A stretch of 22,045 nt of DNA from a virus, in IMG/VR virus record IMGVR_UViG_3300017971_003634, positions 1-22,045 of that record. The stretch is one strand, 5' to 3'. Positions within the stretch are counted from its first letter, which is position 1. Each line of letters opens with the position of its first letter. Of the stretch, positions 2-19,529 are shown piece by piece. Both the position numbers and the translations under genes were made by a program. The notes beneath the pieces were generated by a model, which was not told where the DNA came from, searched no databases, and saw only the letters and a list, made by a program, of their open reading frames with translations.

Positions 2-565
2 GAAGATCCCCGTCCAAAACATCAGATTTACATTGAATTGCTATGGAACGAAATTATCGCCAATGGGCTGTGGCGTAAGATCCTAGACTCTGAAACCTTT
101 GAAGAATGCTTTAATCACTTAAGAGGAGTCAAAACTATTGGAGGTTTTTTAGCCTATCAATTTGTACAGGATCTGAACTACAGTAACCTGGTGGATTTTG
201 ACAACAATTCATTTTGCTTCCCAGGACCAGGAACCATAAGAGGAGTATCCAGGGTGTTTGATTTTGATTTTACCAAAAATACAGAATCCAACGTAGCTGA
301 TGCTGTTATTTGGACCTACCATAATATCATTGGATTATTGAAACACCACGGGATGTTTCTAAAATTCTCACCCCTACCAAACTTCTGGCCTCAGGTACCA
401 GACATCTGTAATTGTTTTTGTGAAACGGATAAATACATGAGGGCAATGAATATTCAACAGGAAGGGGTAAAACGAACCAGATTAAAAAATACTTTTAAAC
501 CAAATACAAACAGAATTAAATATACACTTCCTCCAAAGTGGGGTATAAAAATACTTGAATTATGA
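2..565 (+). CDS. 5-hmdU DNA kinase helical domain / aGPT-Pplase-like protein, 5'-truncated by window edge
   Basis: The frame is open to the first bases of the window, so the gene starts upstream and only its C-terminal part is visible. An in-frame TTG at 38 is not needed as a start. Visible motifs are a helical stretch ending in GVKTIGGFLAYQ-x5-DL, then FCFPGPGTIRGV, and a C-terminal LPPKWG. This arrangement (TIGxFLAYQ, DL, GPG) is what I know from the HMUDK helical domain and the alpha-glutamyl/putrescinyl-thymine pyrophosphorylase-like families, which act on 5-hydroxymethyluracil in phage DNA during thymine hypermodification. The stop overlaps the next start (ATGA at 562), and the next gene is a thymidylate synthase homologue, which is the expected partner. 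Any P-loop kinase part would lie upstream. Seen: motifs, truncation and overlap. Inferred: the exact enzymatic step. Confidence 0.68.
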   Translation, partial: EDPRPKHQIYIELLWNEIIANGLWRKILDSETFEECFNHLRGVKTIGGFLAYQFVQDLNYSNLVDFDNNSFCFPGPGTIRGVSRVFDFDFTKNTESNVADAVIWTYHNIIGLLKHHGMFLKFSPLPNFWPQVPDICNCFCETDKYMRAMNIQQEGVKRTRLKNTFKPNTNRIKYTLPPKWGIKILEL

Positions 566-1578
566 TGTATTCTTTTAGAAATCTAAATCAGATATTGATT
601 GGTATGAGCCGTGTTATCTTAAATAATGGGGTGTGGCGTAGAGTGCGTGGATTTGACTGTCTAGAAATTCCTCACCCAGTCACTATTGAACTGACCAATC
701 CCAGTAATAGATACATAACCATTAGCAAGCGTAAGTGGAATCCCTTTTTACCATGGGCTGAAAGTCTTTGGATGGCTCTGGGACTCAACGATCTTAACAG
801 TTTACCTGGTCGTTATGTAAAGAACTTATATACATACAGTGACAACGGAAGAACATGGCGTGGTGGATATGGTCCTCGTTTAAGAGCATACAGTGGTAAT
901 GCTACGGATTATGATATCAGCGAGCCACAATATCGTCATATCTTCAGTGGCTATGTTAAGCTAATTGATCAGTTACGTTATGTAATTGAAGCTCTGCAGC
1001 GAGACCTGTCAACTCGACAGGCGATCATACAGTTTGGTGATCCCCCAAAGGATTGTTTTGATGAGAATAACATCTTAAAGGAAACTAAAGACTTTCCCTG
1101 TTCTAGAGTATTACAATTCATGGTGGTGGATGGGAAGTTAAATCTTACATTATACATACGTAGTAATGACATATTATACGGACTGAGTGCTGTGAATATT
1201 ACAAACTTCACATTGATGCAAGAATATGTGGCTAATATCATTGGCATTCCCGTAGGAAAATATTATCACATTGTTAATAATCTACATCTCTATAAAGAAC
1301 ACAAAGAAAAGATACACCAATTTGCTGATCTTAGATTAACAGATCATGTAAATGAACTTCAGTGGTATTACAAAGATCGTTTCAAAAGTCTAGACGATTT
1401 TGATAATCAAATCAATCGATTATACGAGTATGAAAAGAAAGTGTATTCGGGAGAGTGTGAAGATATTATCAAATTTGACAATGATATGATTGACGATTGG
1501 GCATTGATATTCTTAAAGTTCAAGAAATTACATATTGATGCTGAATTCAATAACCCATATCTGAATCTTCTATTTTGA
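562..1578 (+). CDS. Thymidylate synthase-family protein, possible dUMP hydroxymethylase
   Basis: The 338-residue protein keeps the thymidylate synthase core. It has DFPCSRVLQF with the nucleophile Cys180, then LYIRSND (about 198-203), then GLSAVNITNF with Asn212, then the NLHLY nucleotide-binding segment (about 240-244). Arg152 in STRQAI fits the phosphate-binding arginine. The family transfers a one-carbon unit from methylene-tetrahydrofolate to the C5 of dUMP. Cellular enzymes make dTMP, while phage relatives make 5-hydroxymethyl-dUMP or -dCMP. The residue after Cys is Ser rather than the usual His, and GLSAVN replaces GLPFN, so it diverges from housekeeping ThyA. Its 4-nt overlap with an HMUDK-like gene and nearby HD and MazG-like genes favour hydroxymethylation, but sequence alone does not separate the two reactions. 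ATGATG at 562 gives two possible adjacent starts. Confidence 0.8.
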   Translation: MMYSFRNLNQILIGMSRVILNNGVWRRVRGFDCLEIPHPVTIELTNPSNRYITISKRKWNPFLPWAESLWMALGLNDLNSLPGRYVKNLYTYSDNGRTWRGGYGPRLRAYSGNATDYDISEPQYRHIFSGYVKLIDQLRYVIEALQRDLSTRQAIIQFGDPPKDCFDENNILKETKDFPCSRVLQFMVVDGKLNLTLYIRSNDILYGLSAVNITNFTLMQEYVANIIGIPVGKYYHIVNNLHLYKEHKEKIHQFADLRLTDHVNELQWYYKDRFKSLDDFDNQINRLYEYEKKVYSGECEDIIKFDNDMIDDWALIFLKFKKLHIDAEFNNPYLNLLF

Positions 1579-2795: not shown

Positions 2796-3190
2796 TGAAT
2801 GGTAATAATACAGAACGTGCTCTTTGGGCAATTTGTGGATTGGTAAAAAAGATCTATGAAAAACTAGACTCTTCAAATGAAAAGTCTGTTAATCCAAATG
2901 TCTCCAATAAACAAGAGGGAGAAACAATGTATGGAAAAGATCTCAGTGTTCCAAGACTATTAGATGAAGCAAAGGGGTATACTTTGTATTTTAAAAACAA
3001 AAATGCGAAGTACTATGGTGAATTACAAAGTATACATAAGACTAAAGCATCAGGTCTTACAAAACGACAGGTCGTGCTAGAACACAAATTAGGAGACAAT
3101 AGTATAATACACAAAGTAAACTTTGATAGATATGATTTTGTTTCAGTACAACATGATTTGAAACTCATCATTTTTAAAATAATAGAATAA
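2792..3190 (+). CDS. Hypothetical protein with possible internal start
   Basis: The 132-residue frame overlaps the previous stop by 4 nt (ATGA at 2792) and its own TAA overlaps the clamp start (TAATG at 3188-3192). The N-terminal 45 residues form a helix plus a polar Asn/Ser-rich linker. The rest (MYGKDLSVPRLLDEAKG...) looks like a compact beta-rich domain. An in-frame ATG at 2927 is preceded by a purine-rich GAGGGAG site at a normal distance, unlike most starts here, so a shorter 87-residue product is possible. No known family is recognised. Confidence 0.6.
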   Translation: MMNGNNTERALWAICGLVKKIYEKLDSSNEKSVNPNVSNKQEGETMYGKDLSVPRLLDEAKGYTLYFKNKNAKYYGELQSIHKTKASGLTKRQVVLEHKLGDNSIIHKVNFDRYDFVSVQHDLKLIIFKIIE

Positions 3191-4215
3191 TGGAACTGAA
3201 CACTAAAGAATTTCAAGAAGCTCTGAAAATAGTCAAACCAGGATTAGCACGAACCGAACTAATCAACCAGAGCACCGATTATGCCTTCCGTAACGGAAGA
3301 ATAATCACTTATAACGATGAGATATCGATAAGTCATCCTGTGAACTCACTGGACGTCACTGGGGTCGTTGAAGCCCTTACGCTATATAACTACGTAACCC
3401 GGTTGAAACGTGAAACCATGACGATAAAAACGACCTCTGAAGAGATGCAAATCACCTGTGGTAAATCCAAAGTAGGAATTCCTTTGATGGAAGAGATATT
3501 ACTCCCACTAGATCAAATTGATGAAGTGAAAGAATGGTTTTCAATTACCGAAGACTTTGTCACAATACTGAATATGGCCTCTGGTGCTACTGCACAAGAC
3601 TTGAATATGGGAGTATTCACTTGTGTTTACTATAACAAAGATACAAAAACCATTACAGGGAGTGATAATTATCGTATTCTACACAGTGATCCTCTGACTG
3701 TAAATGGAAAAGTGGGATCTTTTCTGGTGCCGGCCAAATCAGCACATCTAGTCCCTACAATTATTCCCAATAAAATAGCTGTTACTGAAAGCTGGGTTCA
3801 CTTCAAAAATGAAAGAGGGACCATAATGAGTTGTCGCACAGTACCCGATCAATATAAAGACCTCAGTGGTGTGATTGACAATATAGAAGGACAAACCTTT
3901 GAATTCCCACGTACTATGCTAGAAGTAATAGAAAGAGCAAATATATTCAGTAAAAAAGCAAACACCTGGGAAGAGGAAGTACAGTTTACCATAGCAAATA
4001 ATCGCATCACCTTACGATCACAAGGAGACAGTGGATGGTTTGAAGAATCAATAAATCATCGCTATAAAGATGAACCATTTTCATTCAGTATAATTCCATA
4101 CCTACTTCAAGACATATTGAAACGTACAAGCATTTGTACTGTCAGTGACCATGGGTTACTATTTGTTGGACAAGGGTGGCGATATATCAGTTCATTACTG
4201 AGTATGAAAATGTGA
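3190..4215 (+). CDS. Sliding clamp, DnaN (beta clamp)-like
   Basis: The 341-residue protein is close to the length of bacterial beta clamps (about 365). It shows their repeated beta-alpha-beta character: an N-terminal LNTKEFQEALKIVKPGLA helix, a strand with RNGRIITYNDEISISHP, a middle GSDNYRILHS segment like the clamp motif with a TD.xR core, and a C-terminal tail ending SSLLSMKM. The clamp encircles DNA and tethers the polymerase. The calls rest on fold-level resemblance, not strong identity. It lies directly before the split UDG-exonuclease/polymerase genes and in the same direction as a clamp loader gene, which supports the call. Start is set by the TAATG overlap with the previous gene. 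Confidence 0.75.
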   Translation: MELNTKEFQEALKIVKPGLARTELINQSTDYAFRNGRIITYNDEISISHPVNSLDVTGVVEALTLYNYVTRLKRETMTIKTTSEEMQITCGKSKVGIPLMEEILLPLDQIDEVKEWFSITEDFVTILNMASGATAQDLNMGVFTCVYYNKDTKTITGSDNYRILHSDPLTVNGKVGSFLVPAKSAHLVPTIIPNKIAVTESWVHFKNERGTIMSCRTVPDQYKDLSGVIDNIEGQTFEFPRTMLEVIERANIFSKKANTWEEEVQFTIANNRITLRSQGDSGWFEESINHRYKDEPFSFSIIPYLLQDILKRTSICTVSDHGLLFVGQGWRYISSLLSMKM

Positions 4216-4249: not shown

Positions 4250-5473
4250 ATGACCAGAGGATTCTTTAATAGAGAAAGTCTAAAATCTCCTAACATAAAA
4301 GGAAAACCTCTCACATGCGCCTCATGTGGATTATACAAAGATTGCCGTAGTCCAAAAATGAAACCATACGGCAATTTCCGTAAACACATATTGAACATAG
4401 GAGAAGCTCCTGGAGAACATGAAGACCGAAGAGGGAAACCATGGCAAGGACGTACAGGACGTTTACTCCAAGAAACATACGAACGGTATGGTATTGACCT
4501 ATTTGAAGATTGTGTCAACATCAATTCAGTAAACTGTCGTCCTCCTAACAATTATACTCCCACTAACCATCAAATAGATTGTTGTCGTGTGATGATGGTA
4601 AACCAAGCTCTTGATGAATATAATCCTAAAGCTATTGTAATATTGGGAGGATCAGCTTTGCATAGCTTTTTAAAACATCGTTACAAAAAAGAATTACACG
4701 GAATTAATACCTGGCGAGGGTATGCCATACCAGATCAGGAATACAAATGTTGGGTATTTCCCATTTGGCACCCATCATTTGTACATCGTATGGAGCGTGC
4801 TCGTGAAGTACGTACCATTTGGCATCAAGACATACAACACATAGTTGAACGATATAACGTTCCGTTACCATCTTGGCCAAAACCCAAAATCCACATGATT
4901 GGAGAACTTGATGTTCTTAATGACATAGATACTGGAATAATCAGTGTTGATTATGAGACTACTGGATTAAAACCGCATGCCCATGGACACCAAATAGTTT
5001 CTGCCTCAGTCAGTCCAGATGAGAATACTGCTTATACTTTTTTAATGCCTCATACCAAACGCAAACGAGAACCTTTTATTAGATTATTGACAAATAGATC
5101 GATAGCCAAAATAGGACATCATATAAAGTTTGAAGACACGTGGACTCGTCACAAGTTAAGAGTATTGGTAGAAAATTGGGCATTTGATAGTATGTTGGCT
5201 GCTCACATATTGGATAATCGTTCAAACACTACTAGTTTATCTTTTCAGGAATATGTTAATTTAGGAACGTTGGGGTATGACGAAGAAGTAGCACCATATC
5301 TAAAAAGCATTGACAATAAAGATGGAAATAGTATGAATACAATATTAGATCTTATAAAGACTTCTCAGGGAATTGAAAAACTTTTGACGTACAATGCTAT
5401 GGATACCATCACACAATTCAGAATAGCTAATATACAAATGAAAAGAATGGAATTTGATTTTTTACCTTTTTAA
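4250..5473 (+). CDS. Family 4 uracil-DNA glycosylase fused to a DnaQ/PolA-type 3'-5' exonuclease (front part of a split DNA polymerase)
   Basis: Residues 1 to about 200 form a family 4 UDG. The motif GEAPGEHEDRRGKPWQGRTG (51-70) matches the uracil-binding loop, HPSFVHR (174-180) matches the C-terminal DNA loop, and Cys23, Cys26, Cys96 and Cys111 or 112 fit the four cysteines of the [4Fe-4S] cluster. Residues about 225-395 are a proofreading exonuclease with SVDYETTGL (Asp234, Glu236), GHHIKFEDTW (Asp297) and YNAMDTITQF (Tyr381, Asp385). The frame then ends in a short novel tail (RMEFDFLPF). The enzyme would remove uracil and mispaired 3' ends at the fork. The matching polymerase domain is in a separate gene at 7929. 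Joining at the shared AATGAAA would restore one protein. Confidence 0.88.
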   Translation: MTRGFFNRESLKSPNIKGKPLTCASCGLYKDCRSPKMKPYGNFRKHILNIGEAPGEHEDRRGKPWQGRTGRLLQETYERYGIDLFEDCVNINSVNCRPPNNYTPTNHQIDCCRVMMVNQALDEYNPKAIVILGGSALHSFLKHRYKKELHGINTWRGYAIPDQEYKCWVFPIWHPSFVHRMERAREVRTIWHQDIQHIVERYNVPLPSWPKPKIHMIGELDVLNDIDTGIISVDYETTGLKPHAHGHQIVSASVSPDENTAYTFLMPHTKRKREPFIRLLTNRSIAKIGHHIKFEDTWTRHKLRVLVENWAFDSMLAAHILDNRSNTTSLSFQEYVNLGTLGYDEEVAPYLKSIDNKDGNSMNTILDLIKTSQGIEKLLTYNAMDTITQFRIANIQMKRMEFDFLPF

Positions 5474-5483
5474 TTATTAAGAC

Positions 5484-5987
5484 ATGAAAAGAATCACTTT
5501 GTTAATTGTTATGGCCGCATCCTTAACTGGGTGCTGCCTTTCACAGATTCCCACACAGTATGCCTATGTTGATGATAGCTGTACTGCTATCCTTCCTGAT
5601 TTTACCGGAATTGTAATTGCTCGTGATAATTGCGATTTTGCTATTATCAATCAATACCCGCAACCCGGTGAAATAATCCGGGTCACTACCAATGTTGAGA
5701 TTGAAGCGGTGGACGGGTCAGGCAATGCGGCTTCTGTTTTCTTTGATGTAGTGCTACTGGATACCATCCCCCCGGCTATACAATTAAACCCAGAATGGAC
5801 AGGGTACAGTGATCAAGAAGTGGGTGATATGTACCGGACGTTTTACGGTTGGGTGCAGAATCATTATGCTGAGTTTAATGAGCTATTTGCATGGGATTCA
5901 ATCCCGGGTGTGCCTGTTACCTTATTTTACAATAACATACCTATCCCTGATACAGTCCGTCAGGATTGGTGGTGGGCAACGGAATAA
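5484..5987 (+). CDS. HYR-like domain lipoprotein, cargo gene
   Basis: The 167-residue protein has a lipoprotein signal peptide. It starts with a basic MKR and a hydrophobic run, followed by the lipobox LTGC, with Cys17 as the likely lipidated residue. Residues about 28-92 look like a HYR (hyalin repeat) immunoglobulin-like domain: DDSCTAILPDFTG, DNCDFAIINQYPQPGE, then VEIEAVDGSGNAA and FFDVVLLDTIPP. The C-terminal 70 residues are not recognised. HYR lipoproteins are common on Bacteroidota surfaces, so this may be an acquired host-type gene altering the infected cell surface. That role is inferred. Its base composition (about 52% GC at 5701-5760 by hand count) exceeds the exonuclease gene just upstream (about 37% at 5161-5220). 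Confidence 0.72.
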   Translation: MKRITLLIVMAASLTGCCLSQIPTQYAYVDDSCTAILPDFTGIVIARDNCDFAIINQYPQPGEIIRVTTNVEIEAVDGSGNAASVFFDVVLLDTIPPAIQLNPEWTGYSDQEVGDMYRTFYGWVQNHYAEFNELFAWDSIPGVPVTLFYNNIPIPDTVRQDWWWATE

Positions 5988-6005
5988 ACCATAAAAAGAA
6001 ACACT
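5988..6005 (+). promoter_or_regulatory. Repeated leader motif, copy 1
   Basis: ACCATAAAAAGAAACACT directly follows the stop of the lipoprotein gene and runs up to an ATG. The same leader recurs at 6163 and 7045. It has no Shine-Dalgarno core. An A-rich leader fits Bacteroidota-type initiation. Confidence 0.5.
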
Positions 6006-6153
6006 ATGAAAATATTTAAGAATTGGTTTCGAAACAGAAAATATAGCAATCAAAGAACGGTTTCTCAAAATCGTTTTTGATGATACAGACCATGATCTTG
6101 AACGTATTGAAGCCTTGTATGGAGATTTTCACCATGAATGTGGGGATAGATAG
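6006..6153 (+). pseudogene. Small gene with apparent frameshift
   Basis: An ATG at 6006, preceded by the leader motif, opens a 24-residue frame (MKIFKNWFRNRKYS...) ending at 6080. The +1 frame continues as a charged, protein-like sequence (IAIKERFLKIVFDDTDHD, LERIEALYGDF, stop 6151-6153) but has no start codon of its own. One extra base near 6030-6050 would explain this, and removing it would give a single protein of about 48 residues. No family is recognised. It could be decay or a sequencing or assembly indel. Confidence is limited because the frames are short. Confidence 0.4.
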
Positions 6154-6162
6154 GGGCATATA

Positions 6163-6178
6163 ACCATAAAAAACAACT
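6163..6178 (+). promoter_or_regulatory. Repeated leader motif, copy 2
   Basis: ACCATAAAAAACAACT lies directly before the ATG at 6179 of the DUF7666-like gene. It matches copy 1 through the shared ACCATAAAAA core and the AACA-type end. Confidence 0.5.
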
Positions 6179-7045
6179 ATGAAAGCGTACAAAGTATTTA
6201 ATCCAGATTTTACTTGTCGGGGATTTCAATATGAAGTCGGTAAGACGTACACCAATGAAGGTGATATTTCAATGTGTCAAGAAGGGTTCCACGCCTGTAA
6301 GAATATCTCTGACTGTTTTTCCTTTTATTTGTTTGATCCAAAAAATAAAGTAGCCGAAGTCAAGTTGATGGGAAAAATCCTTGGCAAGGATGAAATCAAA
6401 CAGGTAGCAAATAAGATAAAAATAGTCCGTGAATTGACGTGGAATGAAGTGTTAGAATTAGCAAATACCGGAAAGGGTAACTCAGCGTACAGGAACTCAG
6501 GGTACAGTAACTCAGGGTACAGGAACTCAGGGGACAGGAACTCAGGGTACAGTAACTCAGGGGACAGGAACTCAGGGGACAGGAACTCAGGGGACTGGAA
6601 CTCAGGGTACAGTAACTCAGGGGACAGGAACTCAGGGGACTGGAACTCAGGGGACTGGAACTCAGGGGACTGGAACTCAGGGGACTGGAACTCGGGGGAC
6701 TGGAACTCAGGGTACAGGAACTCAGGATTTTTCAACTCAATTACCCCCGATGAGATATTAGTATTTAATAAGCCTTGTAAACGTTTGCTATGGGAGAATG
6801 CGAAGAAACCGAACTTTATCTATTTCGATTTGTGCGTATGGGTTGAATGGGAAGAGATGACCAAAGAGGAAAAGAAAGACCATAAAGATGCTTATGTTAC
6901 TCAGGGGTATTTAAAAAAGAGGGATTACAAGGAAGCCTGGAAAGAGGCATACAATAAAGCCAGCAAAGAAGATATTGAGTTATTAAAAGCTCTCCCAAAC
7001 TTTGATTCTAAGGTATTTGAAGAGATAACGGGGATTAAGGTATAA
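6179..7045 (+). CDS. DUF7666-like protein with pentapeptide-type NSG repeats
   Basis: Residues 1 to about 70 (KAYKVFNPDFTCRGFQYEVG, GFHACKN, KVAEVKLMGKI) match what I know as the DUF7666 N-terminal domain, found in phages and mobile elements, often ahead of short repeats. Residues 104-183 are sixteen pentapeptides of the form (Y/D)(R/S/W)NSG, followed by a degenerate FFNS unit. A C-terminal domain (about 190-288) contains a helical, lysine/glutamate-rich stretch. Such repeats may form a right-handed beta-helix-like stack. Function is unknown. The gene follows the shared ACCATAAAAA leader and lies in the cargo splitting the polymerase. The near-identical codons of the repeat suggest recent expansion. 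Confidence 0.7.
   Translation: MKAYKVFNPDFTCRGFQYEVGKTYTNEGDISMCQEGFHACKNISDCFSFYLFDPKNKVAEVKLMGKILGKDEIKQVANKIKIVRELTWNEVLELANTGKGNSAYRNSGYSNSGYRNSGDRNSGYSNSGDRNSGDRNSGDWNSGYSNSGDRNSGDWNSGDWNSGDWNSGDWNSGDWNSGYRNSGFFNSITPDEILVFNKPCKRLLWENAKKPNFIYFDLCVWVEWEEMTKEEKKDHKDAYVTQGYLKKRDYKEAWKEAYNKASKEDIELLKALPNFDSKVFEEITGIKV
6488..6727 (+). repeat. Tandem array of 16 x 15-bp units inside the DUF7666-like gene
   Basis: Each unit encodes one (Y/D)xNSG pentapeptide. The DNA unit is close to GACTGGAACTCAGGG. The last third is a run of almost identical D-W-N-S-G units, with a single silent change (CTCAGG to CTCGGG near 6691). The array keeps the frame, so gain or loss of whole units would not break the protein. 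Confidence 0.92.
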
Positions 7046-7062
7046 CCATAAAAAGGAACACA
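7045..7062 (+). promoter_or_regulatory. Repeated leader motif, copy 3, ahead of a broken start
   Basis: The ACCATAAAAAGGAACACA leader begins in the stop of the DUF7666-like gene. At the spacing where copy 1 meets its ATG, this copy meets ATAG instead, consistent with a one-base insertion in the start codon of the next small gene. Confidence 0.45.
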
Positions 7063-7198
7063 ATAGCATATAATTAGTATCAGATGGACCACATTATACT
7101 TAATCGCATATCGCAATAAAAAGCCAAAGTTAGGAATAAAAAGAAGCCAACTAAAACAACAGACCAATGAAAACAAAAGAATTAAGGAGGCAATTTGA
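7063..7198 (+). pseudogene. Small gene with disrupted start codon
   Basis: After the ATAG at 7063-7066 a frame runs open from 7067 to the TGA at 7196-7198 (HIISIRWTTLYLIAYRNKKP, then KLGIKRSQLKQQTNENKRIK). It is basic and protein-like, but it has no in-frame ATG and is preceded by an in-frame TAG. If ATAG were ATG, the leader motif would feed directly into a protein of about 44 residues overlapping the next gene by 32 nt. This may be decay or an indel in the assembly. No family is recognised. Confidence 0.35.
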
Positions 7199-7784
7199 CA
7201 AAGAGGTTAAATCTAAGCTGCCTAGCGGGTATCACGGCGATGCGATCAAGGCAAAGTACATGGTGTGGCTCGAAGAAAAGCTATGCCAGCAACAGGGAGA
7301 ACAGGCGGGGAAATTAACAGAATTAGACTTACCGGCTCCGTGTATGGGCTGCGAATATCGAAACGAGGTGATAGAAGAGCTTTCCACCCCACCCAAAAAG
7401 GATGAACAGGTGGGGAAAATAGAGATTAAAGAAATCGAATCATTCCTACAGGTATTTCATCATGAATATGGGGGAAAATCATGGTCAGTATCTAATTTCC
7501 TAAATGGCCTGAAAAATTGGATTAAGCCTAAATCCACCCCACCCACAGAGGTTAGTGATGATGAACAGGCGGGGGAAACAACTCAATTAGACCTACGACA
7601 AAGATTTGTAGAAGAAGAGGGAATTCCGGTTTATAATTCAGATAATGAAATAGATTTGGATTACGTGCTATGGCTTGAGAGAAAATTGTTATCTGCCCCA
7701 CCCACAGAGGTAAATAAGATGAAACTTATGAAAGATAGACCGATTGAAGACCCAAATAATCCTCAATGGGATACTGATTGGTAG
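7167..7784 (+). CDS. Hypothetical protein with an internally duplicated motif
   Basis: The 205-residue protein contains two related blocks. One is N-terminal (LRRQFDKEV...AIKAKYMVWLEEKL, about residues 6-39), and the other is near residues 141-175 (LRQRFVEEEGIPVY...DYVLWLERKL). The linkers also repeat (STPPKKDEQVGK, STPPTEVSDDEQAGE, SAPPTEVNK), and their DNA is similar, with copies of CCACCCCACCCA. A CMGCEYRNE segment at about 59-67 has one CxxC pair only. No known function is recognised. It lies in the cargo segment and overlaps the end of the broken small gene before it. Confidence 0.6.
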   Translation: MKTKELRRQFDKEVKSKLPSGYHGDAIKAKYMVWLEEKLCQQQGEQAGKLTELDLPAPCMGCEYRNEVIEELSTPPKKDEQVGKIEIKEIESFLQVFHHEYGGKSWSVSNFLNGLKNWIKPKSTPPTEVSDDEQAGETTQLDLRQRFVEEEGIPVYNSDNEIDLDYVLWLERKLLSAPPTEVNKMKLMKDRPIEDPNNPQWDTDW

Positions 7785-7813
7785 ACTTTGCAAAACCAAT
7801 TAAATAAATAGAT

Positions 7814-7929
7814 ATGGGAGAAATAGCAGATGATATGATTAACGGAGCTTGCTGCTCCCTCTGCAACGTATATATGGTCAGGAATGTTATGCCTGTGGAT
7901 ACACAAGACGATACATGGATATTACGTAA
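7814..7929 (+). pseudogene. Small zinc-ribbon protein with apparent frameshift
   Basis: ATG 7814 opens with MGEIADDMINGACCSLCNVY, an N-terminus I know from short phage zinc-ribbon proteins. It has a CxxC pair but then reads into unrelated sequence and stops at 7940-7942. In the -1 frame from about 7876, the expected second pair appears (QECYACGYTRRYMDIT) and the stop TAA at 7927-7929 overlaps the polymerase ATG (TAATG). One missing base near 7876-7879 would join them into a protein of about 38 residues with CxxC-x7-CxxC. It may be a true lesion or an assembly indel. A GGAGC/GCTCC hairpin at 7844-7858 lies within it. Confidence 0.5.
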
Positions 7930-9323
7930 TGAAAGTACATCCTAAGACACTAGACGCATATCATCTACTACACAACGGAATCTTAGCTTTGGGACAAGCC
8001 GAGAGCCATGGAATACGTGTGGACTTGGACTATGTCAATATAGCAATCAGTGATTTAACCAAAAGAATCAAACAAAAAGATACGTCTTTACGTAATACAA
8101 ATTTCTTCCGTCGATGGCAACACACTCGTGGAGGACGTGTTGTTAACATTAATAGTGATACTCAACTAAGAAACTATCTATATAACAAACTCAAATTAGA
8201 ACCTTTCAAATATACAAAATCTGGTGTGGGATCCACTGATGAAGAATCATTACTAGCATTGGACATACCAGAACTGAAAATTATCATAGAACTACGTAAG
8301 CTCCAAAAGATAAGAGATACATATTTAGAATCATTTAAACGAGAACAAATAGACGGGTATATACACCCATTCTTCCATTTACATTTTGTACGGACATATC
8401 GTGGTAGTAGTGATCGTCCTAACTTTCAAAACATTCCCAAACGGGATAAAGAATCAATGCGTCTTACACGCAAAGCATTGTTCCCAAGACCCGGGCACCA
8501 ACTGCTAGAAGCAGACTACTCAAATTTAGAAGTACGCATAGCAGCGTGTTATCATGAAGACCCTACTATGCTTCAGTATATCAAAACAGGACATGATATG
8601 CACGGCGATATGGCCAAACAAATATTCATGTTAGAAAACTTTGATAAAAGTAAATCTGACCATAGTTATTTACGAGCAGCAGCCAAAAACGGATTTGTAT
8701 TCCCACAATTCTACGGAGACTACTTTAAAAATTGTGCCAGATATTTGGCTTGTGATTGGGGTGATTTAAAACCTGGTCGGTGGAGAAATGGTCAGGGGGT
8801 GGAATGTGATAATGGTACTCTGAGTGACCAATTGATTACTAAAGGAATAAAAAATTATGATGCTTTTGCTGATCATATAAAAGAGATAGAAACACACTTT
8901 TGGGGAGAAAGATTTCCGATATACGATCGGTGGAAAACCAAATGGTGGAGACAATATCAAAAAACTGGATATTTGGATATGAAAACCGGATTCAGATGTT
9001 CTGGTTTGATGGATCGCAATGATGTGATAAATTACCCAATTCAAGGTAGTGCCTTCCATTGTCTATTGTGGAGCTTAATAGAAATAGAAAAACGATTACG
9101 AACATTGAACTTACGCTCAAGAATCATAGGACAAATACATGACGCTATCTTATTTGATGTATATCCTCCTGAATTACATGATCTAATCAATTTGATTACT
9201 GATGTAACAACTGTACAATTACCCAAGATTTGGTCGTGGATCATTGTACCTCTGGAAATTGAATTTGAAGTATGTGAAGTTGACACCAGTTGGGCAGATA
9301 AAAAAGAGCTGGTAATACATTAA
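7929..9323 (+). CDS. Family A DNA polymerase domain (rear part of a split polymerase)
   Basis: The 464-residue protein has the three palm/fingers motifs. Motif A is LLEADYSNLEVRI (Asp196, Glu201), motif B is RAAAKNGFVFPQFYGDY (Lys253, Tyr262) and motif C is GQIHDAILFD (His404, Asp405). QNIP (167-170) precedes motif A. Both catalytic aspartates are kept. There is no exonuclease or flap nuclease domain, since proofreading is in the gene at 4250. I chose the ATG at 7929 over 7884. It follows a TAATG overlap with the zinc-ribbon gene, and MKVHPKTLDAYHLLHNGI continues naturally from the exonuclease ending. The 44 residues from the exonuclease motif III Asp to GIRVD match the spacing I recall in E. 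coli Pol I (46). Confidence 0.92.
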   Translation: MKVHPKTLDAYHLLHNGILALGQAESHGIRVDLDYVNIAISDLTKRIKQKDTSLRNTNFFRRWQHTRGGRVVNINSDTQLRNYLYNKLKLEPFKYTKSGVGSTDEESLLALDIPELKIIIELRKLQKIRDTYLESFKREQIDGYIHPFFHLHFVRTYRGSSDRPNFQNIPKRDKESMRLTRKALFPRPGHQLLEADYSNLEVRIAACYHEDPTMLQYIKTGHDMHGDMAKQIFMLENFDKSKSDHSYLRAAAKNGFVFPQFYGDYFKNCARYLACDWGDLKPGRWRNGQGVECDNGTLSDQLITKGIKNYDAFADHIKEIETHFWGERFPIYDRWKTKWWRQYQKTGYLDMKTGFRCSGLMDRNDVINYPIQGSAFHCLLWSLIEIEKRLRTLNLRSRIIGQIHDAILFDVYPPELHDLINLITDVTTVQLPKIWSWIIVPLEIEFEVCEVDTSWADKKELVIH

Positions 9324-9380: not shown

Positions 9381-10295
9381 ATGAGTCTATACAAAACATA
9401 CCGTCCCCAAAATCTGGAAGAATTTGTTGGCAACAAGGAAGTAATTATTTCATTAGAAGGATTATTCTCCAAACCAAAAGATTTTCCTCATGCTACATTG
9501 TTGAGTGGTCCTACCGGCTGTGGGAAAACGACTATCGCACGTATTATTTCCAAACAATTAGAATCCAAAAAATTTGATCTGATTGAACTTGATACGGCTG
9601 ATTTCAGAGGAATTGAAACAATCCGTAATCTAATACGTCAAAGCCAACACCATTCATTGTATGGTGGTAATAGAGTGTGGATACTAGACGAGTGTCACAA
9701 ACTTACAAACGAGGCACAAAATGCTTTATTGAAATTATTAGAAGACCCCCCAAATCATGCTTACTTTATATTATGTACCACAAATCCTTCTAAGTTATTA
9801 AAAACTGTAAAGGGACGCTGTTTACATTATGAATTGACACCGCTGGACGAAAGACACATGCGTCGTCTATTACGTCTGATAGTTAAAGCAGAAGGAAAAA
9901 ATATTGCGGAAGAAATATATGAACAAATAATCAAATCAGCTGAAGGACTACCACGAAACGCAATTCAAATATTAGAAAAAGTATTAAGTGTTCCAGAAGA
10001 ACAACAACTGTCTCATGCAAAACAGACCGAGAAGGCAATAGCTCAATCAATTGACCTGTGTAGACAACTAATACAACGTAAGAATTGGCAAACTATCAGT
10101 ACAACCTTGAAAGGATTGAAAAATCAAGACCCAGAAGGGGTACGACGTCATGTGTTAGGATATTGTCAAACCATATTGCTAAGTAAAGAAGATGACCAAG
10201 CAGCACTGATTATGGAAATATTCAGTGAACCATTTTACAATACATTATATCCCGGATTGGTACTGGCTTGTTATACCGTACACCGGGCAAGATGA
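9381..10295 (+). CDS. Clamp loader ATPase, DnaX/RFC small subunit-like
   Basis: The 304-residue AAA+ protein begins MSLYKTYRPQNLEEFVGN, the classic opening of DnaX and RFC subunits. It has Walker A GPTGCGKT (about 44-51), Walker B VWILDECHKL (about 98-107), sensor 1 CTTNPSK and the arginine finger GRC (SRC in relatives). The C-terminal part (residues 220-304) is helical and shorter than host tau. It loads the sliding clamp encoded at 3190. A possible short gene starts at its stop codon (ATGA at 10292). The 57-nt leader before 9381 contains one ACCATAAAA-type sequence (9347-9355) but no clear promoter. Confidence 0.9.
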   Translation: MSLYKTYRPQNLEEFVGNKEVIISLEGLFSKPKDFPHATLLSGPTGCGKTTIARIISKQLESKKFDLIELDTADFRGIETIRNLIRQSQHHSLYGGNRVWILDECHKLTNEAQNALLKLLEDPPNHAYFILCTTNPSKLLKTVKGRCLHYELTPLDERHMRRLLRLIVKAEGKNIAEEIYEQIIKSAEGLPRNAIQILEKVLSVPEEQQLSHAKQTEKAIAQSIDLCRQLIQRKNWQTISTTLKGLKNQDPEGVRRHVLGYCQTILLSKEDDQAALIMEIFSEPFYNTLYPGLVLACYTVHRAR

Positions 10296-14824: not shown

Positions 14825-15094
14825 ATGCCTGAAGAAAACCTTTTGAATGAACACATAACACATATTAAGACGATACACAATCGTTTATTACATTTAAAAG
14901 GGGCGAAAGATGTCCATCGTGTGGAACTGTTTTTTACAGGAGAAGAAACTACCAGTCTACTCATAGCTCTAGAGTTAGTAATTGATTATTACAATATACA
15001 AAAGAGCACATCTTTCATGTTCAAACTGGCTAAAAAATTTGGAGTAACACGACAAGAAATGATTTCATTACTTGATGAATTAGCACATGATTAA
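14825..15094 (+). CDS. Small helical hypothetical protein
   Basis: The 89-residue helical protein has no cysteine pair and no membrane segment. The C-terminal FMFKLAKKFGVTRQEMISLL resembles a helix-turn-helix edge, but the match is weak. Its TAA (15092-15094) overlaps the SbcC-like start by 8 nt, which suggests coupling to the SbcCD locus. Confidence 0.6.
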   Translation: MPEENLLNEHITHIKTIHNRLLHLKGAKDVHRVELFFTGEETTSLLIALELVIDYYNIQKSTSFMFKLAKKFGVTRQEMISLLDELAHD

Positions 15095-16151
15095 ACAACT
15101 CAACATAAAAAACTTTCAATCTCACAAAAATACGACACTTGAGTTCCACCCGGGTGTCAATACCATAGTAGGACCAACGGATAGTGGGAAATCTGCTATC
15201 ATCAGAGCCTTGCGGTGGTTAATCTGGAACAGACCCACTGGGGAAGCGTTCCGCAGCACGTGGGGGGGTGAAACTCAAGTTAGGATTACCACTGATCAGA
15301 ATCAATTTCTTAGGATTAAAGACAAAGGAAACGTGTATGCCTTGTCTAACGATCCGGAGGGAGTGGATTGGACCGAATATGTAGCATTTGGATCTGATGT
15401 ACCTGAAGACATACAAAAAGCACTCAATATAGATGAAACCAACCTCCAACTACAACTGGATAGTCCTTTCCTACTCAGCTCATCCCCAGGAGAAGTATCG
15501 GCATATTTCAATAAGATCGCACATCTTGACCAGATCGATAAAGGTGTCAAATATGCTCAGAATAAGATACGCACGATCACATCGCAAATCAACAGTGACG
15601 AACGACGGGTTGAAGAACTCAGTACTGAAATCAAAAAGTATGATTATATTGATAAATTTGAGATTGAATTTGAGATCGTTGAACAAATGGGACAGGAGTG
15701 GCAGCAGAAAATCACCACTCAAAACAAATTAGAATCAATTATCACAAACATTAAAAACATTAATCAGAGAATATACCAATATGAGCGGACTATATTACTT
15801 GAGGAACAGGTCGAAGCAACATTACAATTATACAAAGAACGAGAAACACGAATTCAACAGAGTGAAGATATTTACGCTTCCATTACAAATATTATCTATA
15901 TTGATCATCAAATTGAAACAATAGAAAAGACCTCGAAGTTACTCCCTCAAATTGATAAGATTTTGAGTCTAATAGCTGAGGCAAATGAAAAAGAAGAGGA
16001 TCAAGAAAACCTGGAAAAACTGATACACCATATAGCACAAACCGAAAAAGATGTACAAAATACAGAAAAGGAAATCAAGTCATTAAAATCAGAACTACAC
16101 AAACATATGCCAAAAGTTTGTCCCTTGTGTGGTAACAAACTATCAACATGA
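15087..16151 (+). CDS. SbcC/Rad50-like ATPase, N-terminal half with zinc hook
   Basis: The 354-residue protein has the N-terminal head: IKQLNIKNFQSHKNTTLEF, Walker A GPTDSGKS (29-36) and a Q-loop region with LQLDSPFLLSSSPGEV. It then has a long coiled coil (about 165-340) that ends at Cys345-Pro-Leu-Cys348, the zinc-hook motif of Rad50. Ordinary SbcC continues past the hook to a second coil and head. Here the gene stops six residues after the hook. The missing half is at 17895. Zinc bridging of two hooks would assemble the complex. No frame continues in the DNA, so the split is real at this level. Confidence 0.88.
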   Translation: MIKQLNIKNFQSHKNTTLEFHPGVNTIVGPTDSGKSAIIRALRWLIWNRPTGEAFRSTWGGETQVRITTDQNQFLRIKDKGNVYALSNDPEGVDWTEYVAFGSDVPEDIQKALNIDETNLQLQLDSPFLLSSSPGEVSAYFNKIAHLDQIDKGVKYAQNKIRTITSQINSDERRVEELSTEIKKYDYIDKFEIEFEIVEQMGQEWQQKITTQNKLESIITNIKNINQRIYQYERTILLEEQVEATLQLYKERETRIQQSEDIYASITNIIYIDHQIETIEKTSKLLPQIDKILSLIAEANEKEEDQENLEKLIHHIAQTEKDVQNTEKEIKSLKSELHKHMPKVCPLCGNKLST

Positions 16152-16542: not shown

Positions 16543-16781
16543 ACAACGACAAATTGATTAAAACGGAATTTGACGGGCGTAAGGCCTGGGTAGTTGGTGC
16601 TCCTAAAGAAAAACACCCTTATAAAGGTGCTATTGCTACATGTTTAGGTGCAAAATCAACAAATGAAGGATGGGTAATGATGTTCAAGGACGTAAAAACA
16701 GGAGATGAATTCCCAATTAAAGGGGGTAATGAAATAGTATGGGTAACTAATGATGAAAAGGACGAAAGTAAGGAAGGCTGA
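16539..16781 (+). CDS. Small hypothetical protein, beta-rich
   Basis: The 80-residue protein looks like a small beta-barrel (DGRKAWVVGAPKEKHPYKGA, GWVMMFKDVKTGDEFPIKGG) with an acidic tail (NDEKDESKEG). It overlaps SbcD by 32 nt and lies between the SbcC halves. It shares the strand-turn pattern of the protein at 16148 without clear identity. No function is recognised. Confidence 0.55.
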   Translation: MNNDKLIKTEFDGRKAWVVGAPKEKHPYKGAIATCLGAKSTNEGWVMMFKDVKTGDEFPIKGGNEIVWVTNDEKDESKEG

Positions 16782-17658
16782 TCTCATACTGACCAGTGAC
16801 TGGCACATCCGGGAGACTATTCCCGAGTGCCGGACTGATGACTTTGAAGAGACTCTGTGGAAAAAACTCGAGTTCATCGAACAGCTACAGACCCAACATG
16901 GTTGTCCCATCCTTGTAGGTGGTGATATATTTCACCACTGGAAGCCTTCTCCCGGGTTGATACGTAAGGCCATCCTAAACATGCCCTTTGCTGTACATAC
17001 CATATACGGCCAACACGATCTGCCCCAACACAACTGGCAGAACAGGGACAAAAGTGGGCTGGCTGCGCTGGATGCGGCCCGTGCCCTGTTTATACTACCT
17101 AACTGTCACTGGGGACAGGATCCTGAGGTGGAGAAGTACCCATCCTATGAAGTAGAAGGTAGGCAGATCTTGGTCTGGCACCACATGGTCTGGCAGGGAA
17201 GACACCCCTGGCCAGGATGCACCGATCCAAGCACTGTTGCAGTACTTAGAAAATACCCTGAATATGACCTTATACTTACAGGTGATAATCACAAACCATT
17301 TATAGAAGAATATGAAGGAAGAATCCTTGTTAACCCAGGTTCGCTCACTCGGCAGACTGCTGATCAAATCGATCACCTACCCAGAGTTTATTTATATGAT
17401 GCTGATAGCAACACTGTCCAGCCCGTTTACCTTCCTATACAAAAAGGAGATGAGGTCATTAGCAGAGAGCATATTGACAAAAATAAAGAGCGAACCGGAC
17501 GAATCCAAGCCTTCATCAGTAAATTAGGAGAAGAGTGGGCATCAACACTGTCTTTTGAAAAGAATCTTGAGGAATTCTTTAAAACAAACCGTCAAATACG
17601 CACCTCAGTTAAAAATAATGTCTACGAATCAATTGAACGTGATTCAAGAGACTATTAA
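16750..17658 (+). CDS. SbcD/Mre11-like metallophosphoesterase nuclease
   Basis: The 302-residue protein has the calcineurin-like motifs in order: SDWHIR, VGGDIFHHW, YGQHDLPQHN (GQHD in place of the usual GNHD), WHHMVW, LTGDNHKP and NPGSLTRQ. The GxxD, GQHD and HH residues bind two metals. The Gln change is at a metal-ligand site. SbcD supplies the nuclease for SbcC. The first half is GC-rich (about 55% at 16801-16860 by hand count) and the second half AT-rich (about 38% at 17221-17280), suggesting mosaic origin. ATGATG at 16750 is chosen since SDWH follows 17 residues later. Confidence 0.88.
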   Translation: MMKRTKVRKADLILTSDWHIRETIPECRTDDFEETLWKKLEFIEQLQTQHGCPILVGGDIFHHWKPSPGLIRKAILNMPFAVHTIYGQHDLPQHNWQNRDKSGLAALDAARALFILPNCHWGQDPEVEKYPSYEVEGRQILVWHHMVWQGRHPWPGCTDPSTVAVLRKYPEYDLILTGDNHKPFIEEYEGRILVNPGSLTRQTADQIDHLPRVYLYDADSNTVQPVYLPIQKGDEVISREHIDKNKERTGRIQAFISKLGEEWASTLSFEKNLEEFFKTNRQIRTSVKNNVYESIERDSRDY

Positions 17659-17926
17659 ATTGTTTGCTATGGATGAACAGGATCTATTAGAACTGAAACA
17701 GAAAATAAATAAAGCTACTACAAAAGTAGCAGAGTTGAATGGTCAGAAGAAGGTTCTGATGACACAACTGAAAGAAAAATACGGAGTGTCTTCTTTAGAA
17801 AAGGCTCAAGAAAAGGTAAAAAGTTTGGAGAAAGAAATCAAAGTCTTAGATAATCAAATAGACACAGCAACCGAAAAACTAGAAAAGCAGCTGGATGAAA
17901 CCAAAGATTCAACAACTGAGGAATAG
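17618..17926 (+). CDS. Coiled-coil protein between SbcD and SbcC C-half
   Basis: The 102-residue protein overlaps the end of SbcD by 41 nt and the next gene by 32 nt. From about residue 20 it is a continuous, highly charged coiled coil (KQKINKATTKVAELN, EKAQEKVKSLEKEIKVLD). There is no catalytic motif. It may be part of the coiled-coil arm of the split SbcC or a separate linker subunit. Start is ATG 17618. A later ATG at 17669 is possible. Confidence 0.65.
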   Translation: MSTNQLNVIQETIKLFAMDEQDLLELKQKINKATTKVAELNGQKKVLMTQLKEKYGVSSLEKAQEKVKSLEKEIKVLDNQIDTATEKLEKQLDETKDSTTEE

Positions 17927-18506
17927 TTTAGAACGAGAAAAGGGAAGACGATCACAGATCAAGAGTTCCATTATCTCCACACAACGCAAAGCCAAAGAAG
18001 CTGGAAGAGACATGCGTCGTTGGGAACAAGCCCGTGAAATCATACGTGAAGTAGGATTAAAGACCCAACAACAACTTCAATATCACATAGGAGACATAAC
18101 CTCGTTGGCATTAGAAGCAGTCTTTCCAGTGGATCCTTATGAACTTGTGGTTGAATTTGTGGAAAGACGGAATAAAACTGAATGCGATTTGTATTTCAGC
18201 CGTGATGGTCATAAAATACACCCTCTTTCGGCAAGTGGTGTGGGTGCTGTTGATGTAGCCACCTTCGCATTACGCATTGCGGCCTGGTCTATGCAAATCC
18301 CAAAACGACGTAATGTTATCATACTGGATGAACCTTTCCGATTTCTTTCCGCTGAATATCAAGAGAAGGCCTCCCGTATGGTTAAAGAATTAAGTGAAAA
18401 ATTGGGGTTGCAATTTATCATCATCACACACGAGCAAATCCTATCAGAATACGCTGACAAAACTTTCCATATACAATTGAAAAAAGGTAAAAGTATAATA
18501 AAATAA
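17895..18506 (+). CDS. SbcC/Rad50-like ATPase, C-terminal half
   Basis: The 203-residue protein starts with a coil (1 to about 60) and then has the C-terminal head: HPLSASGVGAVDVATFALRI (109-128, ABC signature in degenerate form), Walker B NVIILDEPFRF (140-150) and the H-loop ITHE (177-180). It completes the ATP-binding site of the N-terminal half at 15087. The Glu of DEP is intact. There is no zinc hook here. It starts at ATG 17895 inside the coiled-coil gene, which suggests translational coupling. Confidence 0.85.
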   Translation: MKPKIQQLRNSLEREKGRRSQIKSSIISTQRKAKEAGRDMRRWEQAREIIREVGLKTQQQLQYHIGDITSLALEAVFPVDPYELVVEFVERRNKTECDLYFSRDGHKIHPLSASGVGAVDVATFALRIAAWSMQIPKRRNVIILDEPFRFLSAEYQEKASRMVKELSEKLGLQFIIITHEQILSEYADKTFHIQLKKGKSIIK

Positions 18507-18653: not shown

Positions 18654-19529
18654 ATGAAAACGAACCAGACATTATTAGACCAATTCAGAAATCATTTTCT
18701 GAGGATACGATTCCAAATATATCAGAATGTATTTCCAAAAAGACTAAAGGATAAGTCTCACTGTCTTAAAGTCGGTAGAGTCTGTACCTTTACTGATGAA
18801 TTTGCACGTAACTCATGGAGCGGAGCACCGCAAGACAAACGATGGGATGTGGGAGAAGCTTGGGGAATGTATCATCCTGATAAACCAAATACATATTTTG
18901 GACCACCTGATCCAGATTCATTAGGAGAAAGTGTAGCAATATTTACTGCTAAATATAACCCCAAATACTTTGAGGATAGAGAATTGACAATCCCCTACGA
19001 AACCACCCTTCTGTCAACACAAAAAACCTTCCGTCAACAATACGGTAGATTTGAATGTCGATGCACCTTACCCCAAGAGAAAGCTGTTTGGCCAGCCTTT
19101 TGGTTATATGGTCCTACGTGGCCTCCTGAAATTGACATCTTTGAATGTCTTGGTCGTAATACCGGAGAATCTGCTAACACCCAGGAAATAAATCTACATT
19201 ACGGAAGAGTTGAAGAAGGGAACAAAATGTGTATGGGAGCCTGGAAAATACCATTGAAGAAAAAAGGATTTCATGAATTTGCTTTAGAATGGACTCCCAA
19301 ACGTTTGGACTTCTATACTGATGGTATTAGAGTCTTTACCTATTCTAATCAACAAGTATTAGATAAATGGTTTAATACGCCAGATGGACGTATGTGGATT
19401 ATTCTAAACCATGGGCTTGGCCCAAATTATATGAAAGATAATGAAGAAGACTTCTTTTCCTTTTTCTTTGTGGATTATGTAAGAGTATATTCAGACAAGC
19501 CCGTTATTAATGATTTGAACCTATTATAA
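18654..19529 (+). CDS. Glycoside hydrolase family 16 enzyme without signal peptide
   Basis: The 291-residue protein carries the GH16 active-site motif EIDIFE (Glu159, Asp161, Glu164), preceded by WPAFWLYGPTWPP. FHEFALEWTPKRLDFYTDG (206-224) and FVDYVRVYS (272-280) are typical later strands. The family hydrolyses beta-1,3 or beta-1,4 glucans and galactans such as laminarin, agar and carrageenan. There is no signal peptide, and the N-terminal 45 residues look cytoplasmic, so release would need lysis or virion loading. The gene sits after SbcC, not among tail genes. Substrate is unknown. The stop is 19527-19529. Confidence 0.85.
   Translation: MKTNQTLLDQFRNHFLRIRFQIYQNVFPKRLKDKSHCLKVGRVCTFTDEFARNSWSGAPQDKRWDVGEAWGMYHPDKPNTYFGPPDPDSLGESVAIFTAKYNPKYFEDRELTIPYETTLLSTQKTFRQQYGRFECRCTLPQEKAVWPAFWLYGPTWPPEIDIFECLGRNTGESANTQEINLHYGRVEEGNKMCMGAWKIPLKKKGFHEFALEWTPKRLDFYTDGIRVFTYSNQQVLDKWFNTPDGRMWIILNHGLGPNYMKDNEEDFFSFFFVDYVRVYSDKPVINDLNLL

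What the first reader, a model, noticed from the sequence alone, without database searches (positions are those of the whole stretch)
4250..9323. A DNA polymerase split by a cargo segment exactly at the exonuclease-polymerase joint
The exonuclease half contains AATGAAA at 5437-5443 (...RIANIQMK) and the polymerase half starts with AATGAAA at 7928-7934 (MKVHPKTL...). Deleting 5438-7928 (2491 bp) joins them in frame, giving an 860-residue UDG-exonuclease-polymerase. The spacing from the exonuclease III Asp to GIRVD would be 44 residues, close to E. coli Pol I (46). The insert carries unrelated genes with higher GC in places. A shared 7-base end suggests microhomology or target duplication. Seen: frames, repeat, motifs. 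Inference: the ancestral gene was whole.
Basis: partly seen in the sequence, partly recalled or inferred. Interest (0 to 1): 0.75.

Follow-up and report, generated by a model that had tools for sequence, protein, structure and literature searches.

The report
Old two-gene phage polymerase carrying cargo
A phage copies its DNA with a polymerase whose proofreading half and synthesising half are separate genes across a large family of uncultured phages; the extra genes between them here are later tenants of an already existing gap, not the cause of the split.

Summary
The two half-genes are real: a UDG + 3'-5' exonuclease gene (4250-5473) and a family-A polymerase gene (ATG at 7929, to 9323), with 2,455 nt of unrelated genes between them. 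In 93 of 109 non-redundant relatives exo and pol are separate genes on one strand, with spacing from -23 to 5,254 nt and different content each time. The closest relative (L016/L017, 60% identity) has the genes overlapping by one base (..FLPF-TGATG..). The exo gene ends naturally in LPF*, shared by 54 of 93 split relatives. So the split is old, and the cargo entered an existing gene boundary. Whole UDG-exo-pol genes exist in distant phages and scattered inside the clade, so fission or fusion happened repeatedly (at least five times on well-supported branches). Both halves keep their catalytic residues and are under purifying selection. Most likely this is a working two-polypeptide proofreading polymerase; association of the two proteins is inferred. 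The LPF* tail may be a docking peptide.

The parts
3190..4215 (+). Sliding clamp (DNA polymerase processivity factor), native gene just upstream
   Evidence: phrog_947, 5.5e-33; in 85 relatives, median gap to exo 2 nt
4250..5473 (+). UDG + 3'-5' exonuclease subunit, 407 aa, complete gene
   Evidence: Pfam UDG and DNA_pol_A_exo1; AlphaFold2 mean pLDDT 92, last helix residues 372-400; Fe-S Cys 23/26/96/112, exo D234/E236/E295/Y381/D385 invariant in 43 relatives
5444..5473 (+). C-terminal tail RMEFDFLPF* of the exo subunit, which the proposed deletion would remove
   Evidence: 54 of 93 split relatives end in PF*; -3 L in 50/54
5474..7928 (.). Cargo segment of 2,455 nt at the exo/pol gene boundary
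   Evidence: Gap -1 nt in the sister L017 and different content in every relative
5484..5987 (+). Cargo: predicted lipoprotein, 167 aa
   Evidence: Lipobox LTGCC; weak LPAM_1 match 0.0084; no relative in the fetched loci
6179..7045 (+). Cargo: DUF7666 + pentapeptide-repeat protein, 288 aa
   Evidence: Pfam DUF7666 1.9e-31, Pentapeptide_2 1.2e-18; relatives in 80 other loci, only one of which holds a related polymerase
7167..7784 (+). Cargo: 205-aa protein with internal repeats
   Evidence: No Pfam or PHROG match; repeats D2-D5
7814..7945 (+). Cargo: 43-aa ORF that overlaps the polymerase start
   Evidence: Translation
7929..9323 (+). Family-A DNA polymerase subunit, 464 aa
   Evidence: Pfam DNA_pol_A 1.4e-51; motif residues D195, R248/K252, Y261/G262, H403/D404 invariant in 35 relatives (numbered from 7932)
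9381..10295 (+). Clamp loader, native gene just downstream
   Evidence: phrog_5846, 3.6e-72; in 95 relatives, median gap from pol 74 nt

Best explanation
The window encodes a two-polypeptide family-A DNA polymerase: one gene makes a uracil-DNA glycosylase plus proofreading exonuclease subunit, a second makes the polymerase subunit. The split lies in the flexible linker between the exonuclease's last helix and the polymerase's first helix. It is an old, inherited arrangement in a large clade of uncultured phages and did not arise from this insert. The cargo (lipoprotein, DUF7666/pentapeptide protein, a 205-aa protein) was added later at the existing boundary between exo stop and pol start, as other accessory genes were in relatives. 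Deeper in the family the gene is whole, and fission or re-fusion has happened several times. Shown: gene separation, conserved ends, catalytic residues, purifying selection, variable cargo. Inferred: that the two proteins work together at the fork, held by the clamp/replisome, and that the LPF* tail is a docking peptide.
For: 93 split against 16 fused among 109 informative 95%-clusters; gaps -23 to 5,254 nt, 37 of 93 at 56 nt or less. The sister of the window in the polymerase tree (SH-aLRT 93), L017, has gap -1, the same FLPF* end and the same pol start ATGAATCTACATCC against ATGAAAGTACATCC. Exo C-terminus ..FLPF* conserved. The helix 372-400 runs through the proposed joint at residues 397-398; in the fused relative L082 the joint is a pLDDT<50 linker (416-422) between helices 385-413 and 425-445. 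Cargo differs: radical SAM, methyltransferases, ThyX, dUTPase, PAPS reductase, KilA-N, 5'-3' exonuclease, none a homing endonuclease or transposase by Pfam. dN/dS about 0.05-0.17 for exo and for pol in five of six close pairs with usable dS. Fused outgroups with clamp-pol-loader order as in MAR10.
Against: No data show that the two proteins bind each other. Exo and pol distances correlate no better with each other (r 0.65) than with clamp or loader (0.57-0.71), so they show no coupling beyond shared genome history. In one close pair (L115/L116) the pol ratio is higher, about 0.28. 39 of 93 split exos lack a terminal PF. The relatives were the best-scoring hits, so the split/fused ratio is not a census. 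The cargo itself rests on one assembly: no other viral contig holds either junction.
Confidence: 0.85

Rival explanations
1. One reading: a cargo segment recently inserted into a whole gene at AATGAAA (5437/7928), splitting it.
For: In-frame join of 860 aa; 7-base repeat at both places; unsplit relatives exist.
Against: Nearest relatives are split with no cargo; the exo gene continues 10 codons past the proposed joint to a conserved LPF*; AATGAAA occurs 20 times in the window; artificial joint 39 residues against 40-53 in natural fusions.
Confidence: 0.03
2. The halves are exons of one protein, separated by an intron or intein, or joined by trans-splicing.
For: Introns are known in phage polymerase genes (noted for OM43 phages in PMC10580990).
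Against: No Rfam match in the window; cargo is several ordinary genes; exo has its own conserved stop and pol its own start; in many relatives the two ORFs overlap by 1-23 nt, leaving no room for an intron.
Confidence: 0.02
3. Chimeric assembly: the cargo does not lie between exo and pol in the real genome.
For: No other contig holds either junction; the near-identical contig L001 begins inside pol and does not cover it.
Against: Clamp-exo and pol-loader order continues on both sides as in relatives; cargo at this boundary is common (56 of 93 have more than 150 nt); the leader AACCATAAAA occurs three times in the cargo and once between native pol and loader, 0.2 expected.
Confidence: 0.05
4. 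The exo subunit is a decaying remnant and the polymerase works alone.
For: Jumbo phages and others use polymerases without a fused exonuclease (PMC7824862).
Against: Catalytic and Fe-S residues invariant in 43 sequences; low dN/dS; well-folded model.
Confidence: 0.05

Closest known systems
UDG-exo-PolA single-chain phage polymerases (phrog_17; Serratia phage Serbin, Vibrio phage MAR10, Lysinibacillus phage LysYB1, MW202455)
   Same: Same domain order UDG, 3'-5' exo, PolA; MAR10 also has clamp-pol-clamp loader order and the FPQF fingers motif
   Different: One chain of about 800-890 aa; 22-32% identity; only Serbin ends in a ..DIPF tail
phiLo family-A polymerase, PDB 9qhs (on modified template)
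   Same: Top fold match of the exo subunit (E 3.5e-15); UDG-like domain in a PolA chain
   Different: Single chain of over 1,100 aa
Caudoviricetes MW202554 (L012)
   Same: UDG-exo and polymerase deposited as two genes 151 nt apart, split at the same joint
   Different: Distant lineage with a different fingers motif; no LPF tail; probably an independent split
Split PolA of OM43 phages MEP401/MEP402 (PMC10580990)
   Same: Family-A polymerase in two ORFs with a small ORF between
   Different: Split lies inside the polymerase domain; no UDG domain reported in the passages read
Jumbo group-1 phage polymerases with stand-alone exonuclease (PMC7824862)
   Same: Proofreading exonuclease proposed as a separate subunit
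   Different: A divergent polymerase of another kind; exo encoded elsewhere in the genome
E. coli DNA polymerase I Klenow fragment (PDB 1d8y)
   Same: Fold of exo + pol (top match of the fused relative L082)
   Different: One chain; no UDG domain

Membership tests
Family-A DNA polymerase (PolA, phrog_17) | Match to the family profile over the polymerase domain | tested here: met
   PF00476 1.4e-51, phrog_17 1.1e-60
Family-A DNA polymerase (PolA, phrog_17) | Motif A Asp, motif B RxxxK..YG, motif C HD | tested here: met
   D195, R248/K252/Y261/G262, H403/D404 invariant in 35 sequences; motif B appears one residue longer than usual, inferred from the alignment
Family-A DNA polymerase (PolA, phrog_17) | Exo and pol on one chain | tested here: not met
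   Two genes with a stop at 5473 and a start at 7929; 93 of 109 relatives likewise
Proofreading exonuclease of the DnaQ-like (DEDDy) type | DxE, third acidic residue, YxxxD | tested here: met
   D234/E236, E295 (Glu where Pol I has Asp), Y381/D385 invariant in 43 sequences
Family-4 uracil-DNA glycosylase | GExPG..ED..GxP motif, NxxxCRPPxN, HPS, four Fe-S cysteines | tested here: met
   Motifs in the ORF 4250-5473; C23, C26, C96, C112 invariant; PDB 1vk2 7.4e-26
Family-4 uracil-DNA glycosylase | Uracil excision activity | not testable with these tools
   Needs an assay
Group I intron or intein interruption | Intron RNA, or splicing domain in frame | tested here: not met
   No Rfam match; the insert is separate ORFs; no splicing or homing-endonuclease domain by Pfam in the window's cargo or in the 53 cargo proteins scanned
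SSB-Ct-like or clamp-binding C-terminal peptide (for LPF*) | Free C-terminal acidic-hydrophobic-Pro-Phe that binds a partner pocket | tested here: inconclusive
   Terminal PF in 54 of 93 split exos, 3 of 12 in-clade fused pols and 0 of 93 split pols (Fisher p 0.0012, not corrected for phylogeny); acidity weak; binding not testable

The most novel reading that the evidence does not exclude
In this phage clade proofreading and uracil excision are a separate replisome subunit that acts in trans and docks through a C-terminal LPF* peptide on a shared partner (clamp, clamp loader, or a host site that normally takes the SSB tail). When the genes re-fuse, the peptide can reappear at the end of the whole polymerase; a similar ending is also seen on clamp loaders of phages whose exo lacks it.
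Probability: 0.3. Interest if true: 0.7.

Novelty: new variant of a known kind. Interest (0 to 1): 0.45.

Why it matters
Textbook family-A polymerases carry proofreading on the same chain. A large natural set of two-chain versions, with whole-chain relatives interleaved in the same tree, makes it testable whether proofreading can work in trans in family A, and what holds a replicase together when the chain is cut. It also shows that microhomology plus an in-frame join is not evidence for a recent insertion.

Tried and rejected
Microhomology-mediated insertion (AATGAAA too common, joint inside the exo gene). Intron. tRNA-linked insertion (no tRNA). Homing endonuclease or transposase as the driver (none by Pfam in the window's cargo or in 53 cargo proteins). 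Exo-pol boundary as a unique hotspot: gaps at other boundaries vary too (clamp-exo at most 60 nt in 62 of 85, pol-loader 45 of 95, loader-next 26 of 93), although inserts over 1 kb are commonest here (14 of 93 against 7 of 85, 4 of 95 and 8 of 93). Coevolution of exo and pol beyond genome background: not seen. Second assembly of the junctions: none found. L231 looked like a distant split by blast hits but is one ORF. Literature searches for this split gave only the cases listed; the library is open-access only.

Full report
WHAT IS THERE. The window is a 22,045-base virus record. Native order: 5-hmdU DNA kinase domain, thymidylate synthase-like gene, nucleotidase, sliding clamp (3190-4215), UDG-exo (4250-5473), cargo (5474-7928), polymerase (7929-9323), clamp loader (9381-10295), then an acidic protein that I read as a gp32-like single-strand binder (not matched by Pfam), RecA, RuvC-like and SbcC/SbcD-like genes. 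The halves match consecutive stretches of one profile, phrog_17 (471-828 and 833-1235).

THE SPLIT IS OLD. Scans of viral contigs with alignments of the two halves, of GTDB genomes and of phage records gave 158 loci with the polymerase, 114 clusters at 95% identity. Of 109 informative clusters 93 are split and 16 fused (4 of the fused are distant phages). All split pairs are same-strand, exo first. The gap runs from -23 to 5,254 nt; 37 of 93 are at most 56 nt. The window's sister in the polymerase tree is L017 (SH-aLRT 93), whose genes overlap as ..TTACCTTTCTGATGAATCTACATCC; the window has ..TTACCTTTTTAA, then cargo, then ATGAAAGTACATCC. The cargo therefore sits exactly between the old stop and the old start.

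THE PROPOSED JOINT IS INSIDE THE EXO GENE. The exo protein ends RMEFDFLPF*. Relatives end MDYSFLPF*, MNYDFLPF*, QRMNLLPF* and so on; 54 of 93 split exos end in PF. The AlphaFold model (pLDDT 92) has a last helix at residues 372-400 that runs through the proposed joint at 397-398, followed by a short low-confidence tail. In a naturally fused relative (L082) the linker is residues 416-422, pLDDT under 50. AATGAAA occurs 20 times in the window.

WHOLE GENES EXIST TOO. Serbin, MAR10, LysYB1 and MW202455 have UDG-exo-pol on one chain; MAR10 has clamp, pol, thymidylate synthase, clamp loader in a row. L231 (28% identity) is also one ORF. Twelve fused members lie inside the clade. Parsimony needs 8 changes; counting only branches with support of 95 or more, at least 5 separate split groups and 6 fused groups remain, so fission, fusion or both recurred. 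MW202554 is a probably independent split at the same joint.

CARGO. Among 53 cargo proteins from relatives, Pfam finds radical SAM, ThyX, DNA methylases, a TET-associated glycosyltransferase, dUTPase, PAPS reductase, KilA-N, a 5'-3' exonuclease and DUFs. The window's DUF7666/pentapeptide gene has relatives in 80 other viral loci, only one of which (L231) holds a related polymerase. Other boundaries in the replication block also take extra genes, so this is ordinary gene-boundary mosaicism, somewhat commoner here for inserts over 1 kb.

FUNCTION. UDG: the four Fe-S cysteines are invariant and family-4 UDG structures are the best sequence matches. Exo: DxE, Glu, YxxxD invariant. Pol: motif A, B and C residues invariant. 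dN/dS is about 0.05-0.17 for both genes in five of six close pairs with usable dS; in the sixth (L115/L116) pol is about 0.28. The simplest reading is a working polymerase in two polypeptides. That they meet at the fork is inference; the clamp and clamp loader genes flank the pair.

THE LPF TAIL. Of 1,635 ORFs of at least 80 aa in the loci, 63 end in PF: 51 are exo subunits, 4 fused polymerases (L057, L074, L082, Serbin), 3 clamp loaders from phages whose exo lacks PF, 1 the acidic gp32-like protein of a phage with a fused polymerase, and 4 others. No split polymerase ends in PF (0 of 93) against 3 of 12 in-clade fused ones (Fisher p 0.0012; those three lie in one clade, so this may be one event). 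From memory, E. coli SSB ends DDDIPF, and T4, T7 and bacterial replisomes use C-terminal docking peptides; this is a lead, not a test.

VERDICT. Observation largely correct, interpretation of the insertion wrong, ancestral wholeness right at depth. The interesting object is the clade of two-chain UDG-proofreading family-A polymerases.

Noticed in passing
15087-16151 and 17895-18506 (+), with 16750-17658 between: The Rad50/SbcC-like ATPase is also in separate pieces: the N-terminal half ends just after a zinc-hook-like CPLC motif, and the C-terminal half is a separate ORF beyond the SbcD-like phosphoesterase. The N half ends near a CxxC in 34 of 35 relatives with a complete N-half ORF; in the 3 loci that hold both halves they are separate.
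   Followed up: partly
2-1578 (+): 5-hmdU DNA kinase helical domain (8.7e-25) and a thymidylate synthase-like gene: the phage probably carries hypermodified thymidine, which may explain a UDG domain at the replication fork.
   Followed up: partly
18654-19529 (+): Glycoside hydrolase family 16 gene (1.2e-17) in the replication/recombination part of a phage genome.
   Followed up: no
5987, 6162, 7044, 9347 (+): Repeated leader AACCATAAAA, four copies against 0.21 expected, three in the cargo and one before the native clamp loader.
   Followed up: no
6477-6724 (+): 15-bp tandem repeat coding for pentapeptide repeats in the DUF7666 protein.
   Followed up: no
8673-8724 (+): Unusual polymerase motif B, RAAAKNGFVFPQFYGDY, apparently one residue longer than in Pol I; MAR10 has the similar VKNQWVFPQFFG.
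   Followed up: partly
L117:9570-10412: In one relative the cargo between exo and pol includes a 5'-3' exonuclease, the third Pol I activity, as its own gene.
   Followed up: no
6007-6154 (+): Short ORF in the cargo that looks frameshifted (readable in two frames), perhaps a decaying gene; seen by reading the sequence.
   Followed up: no
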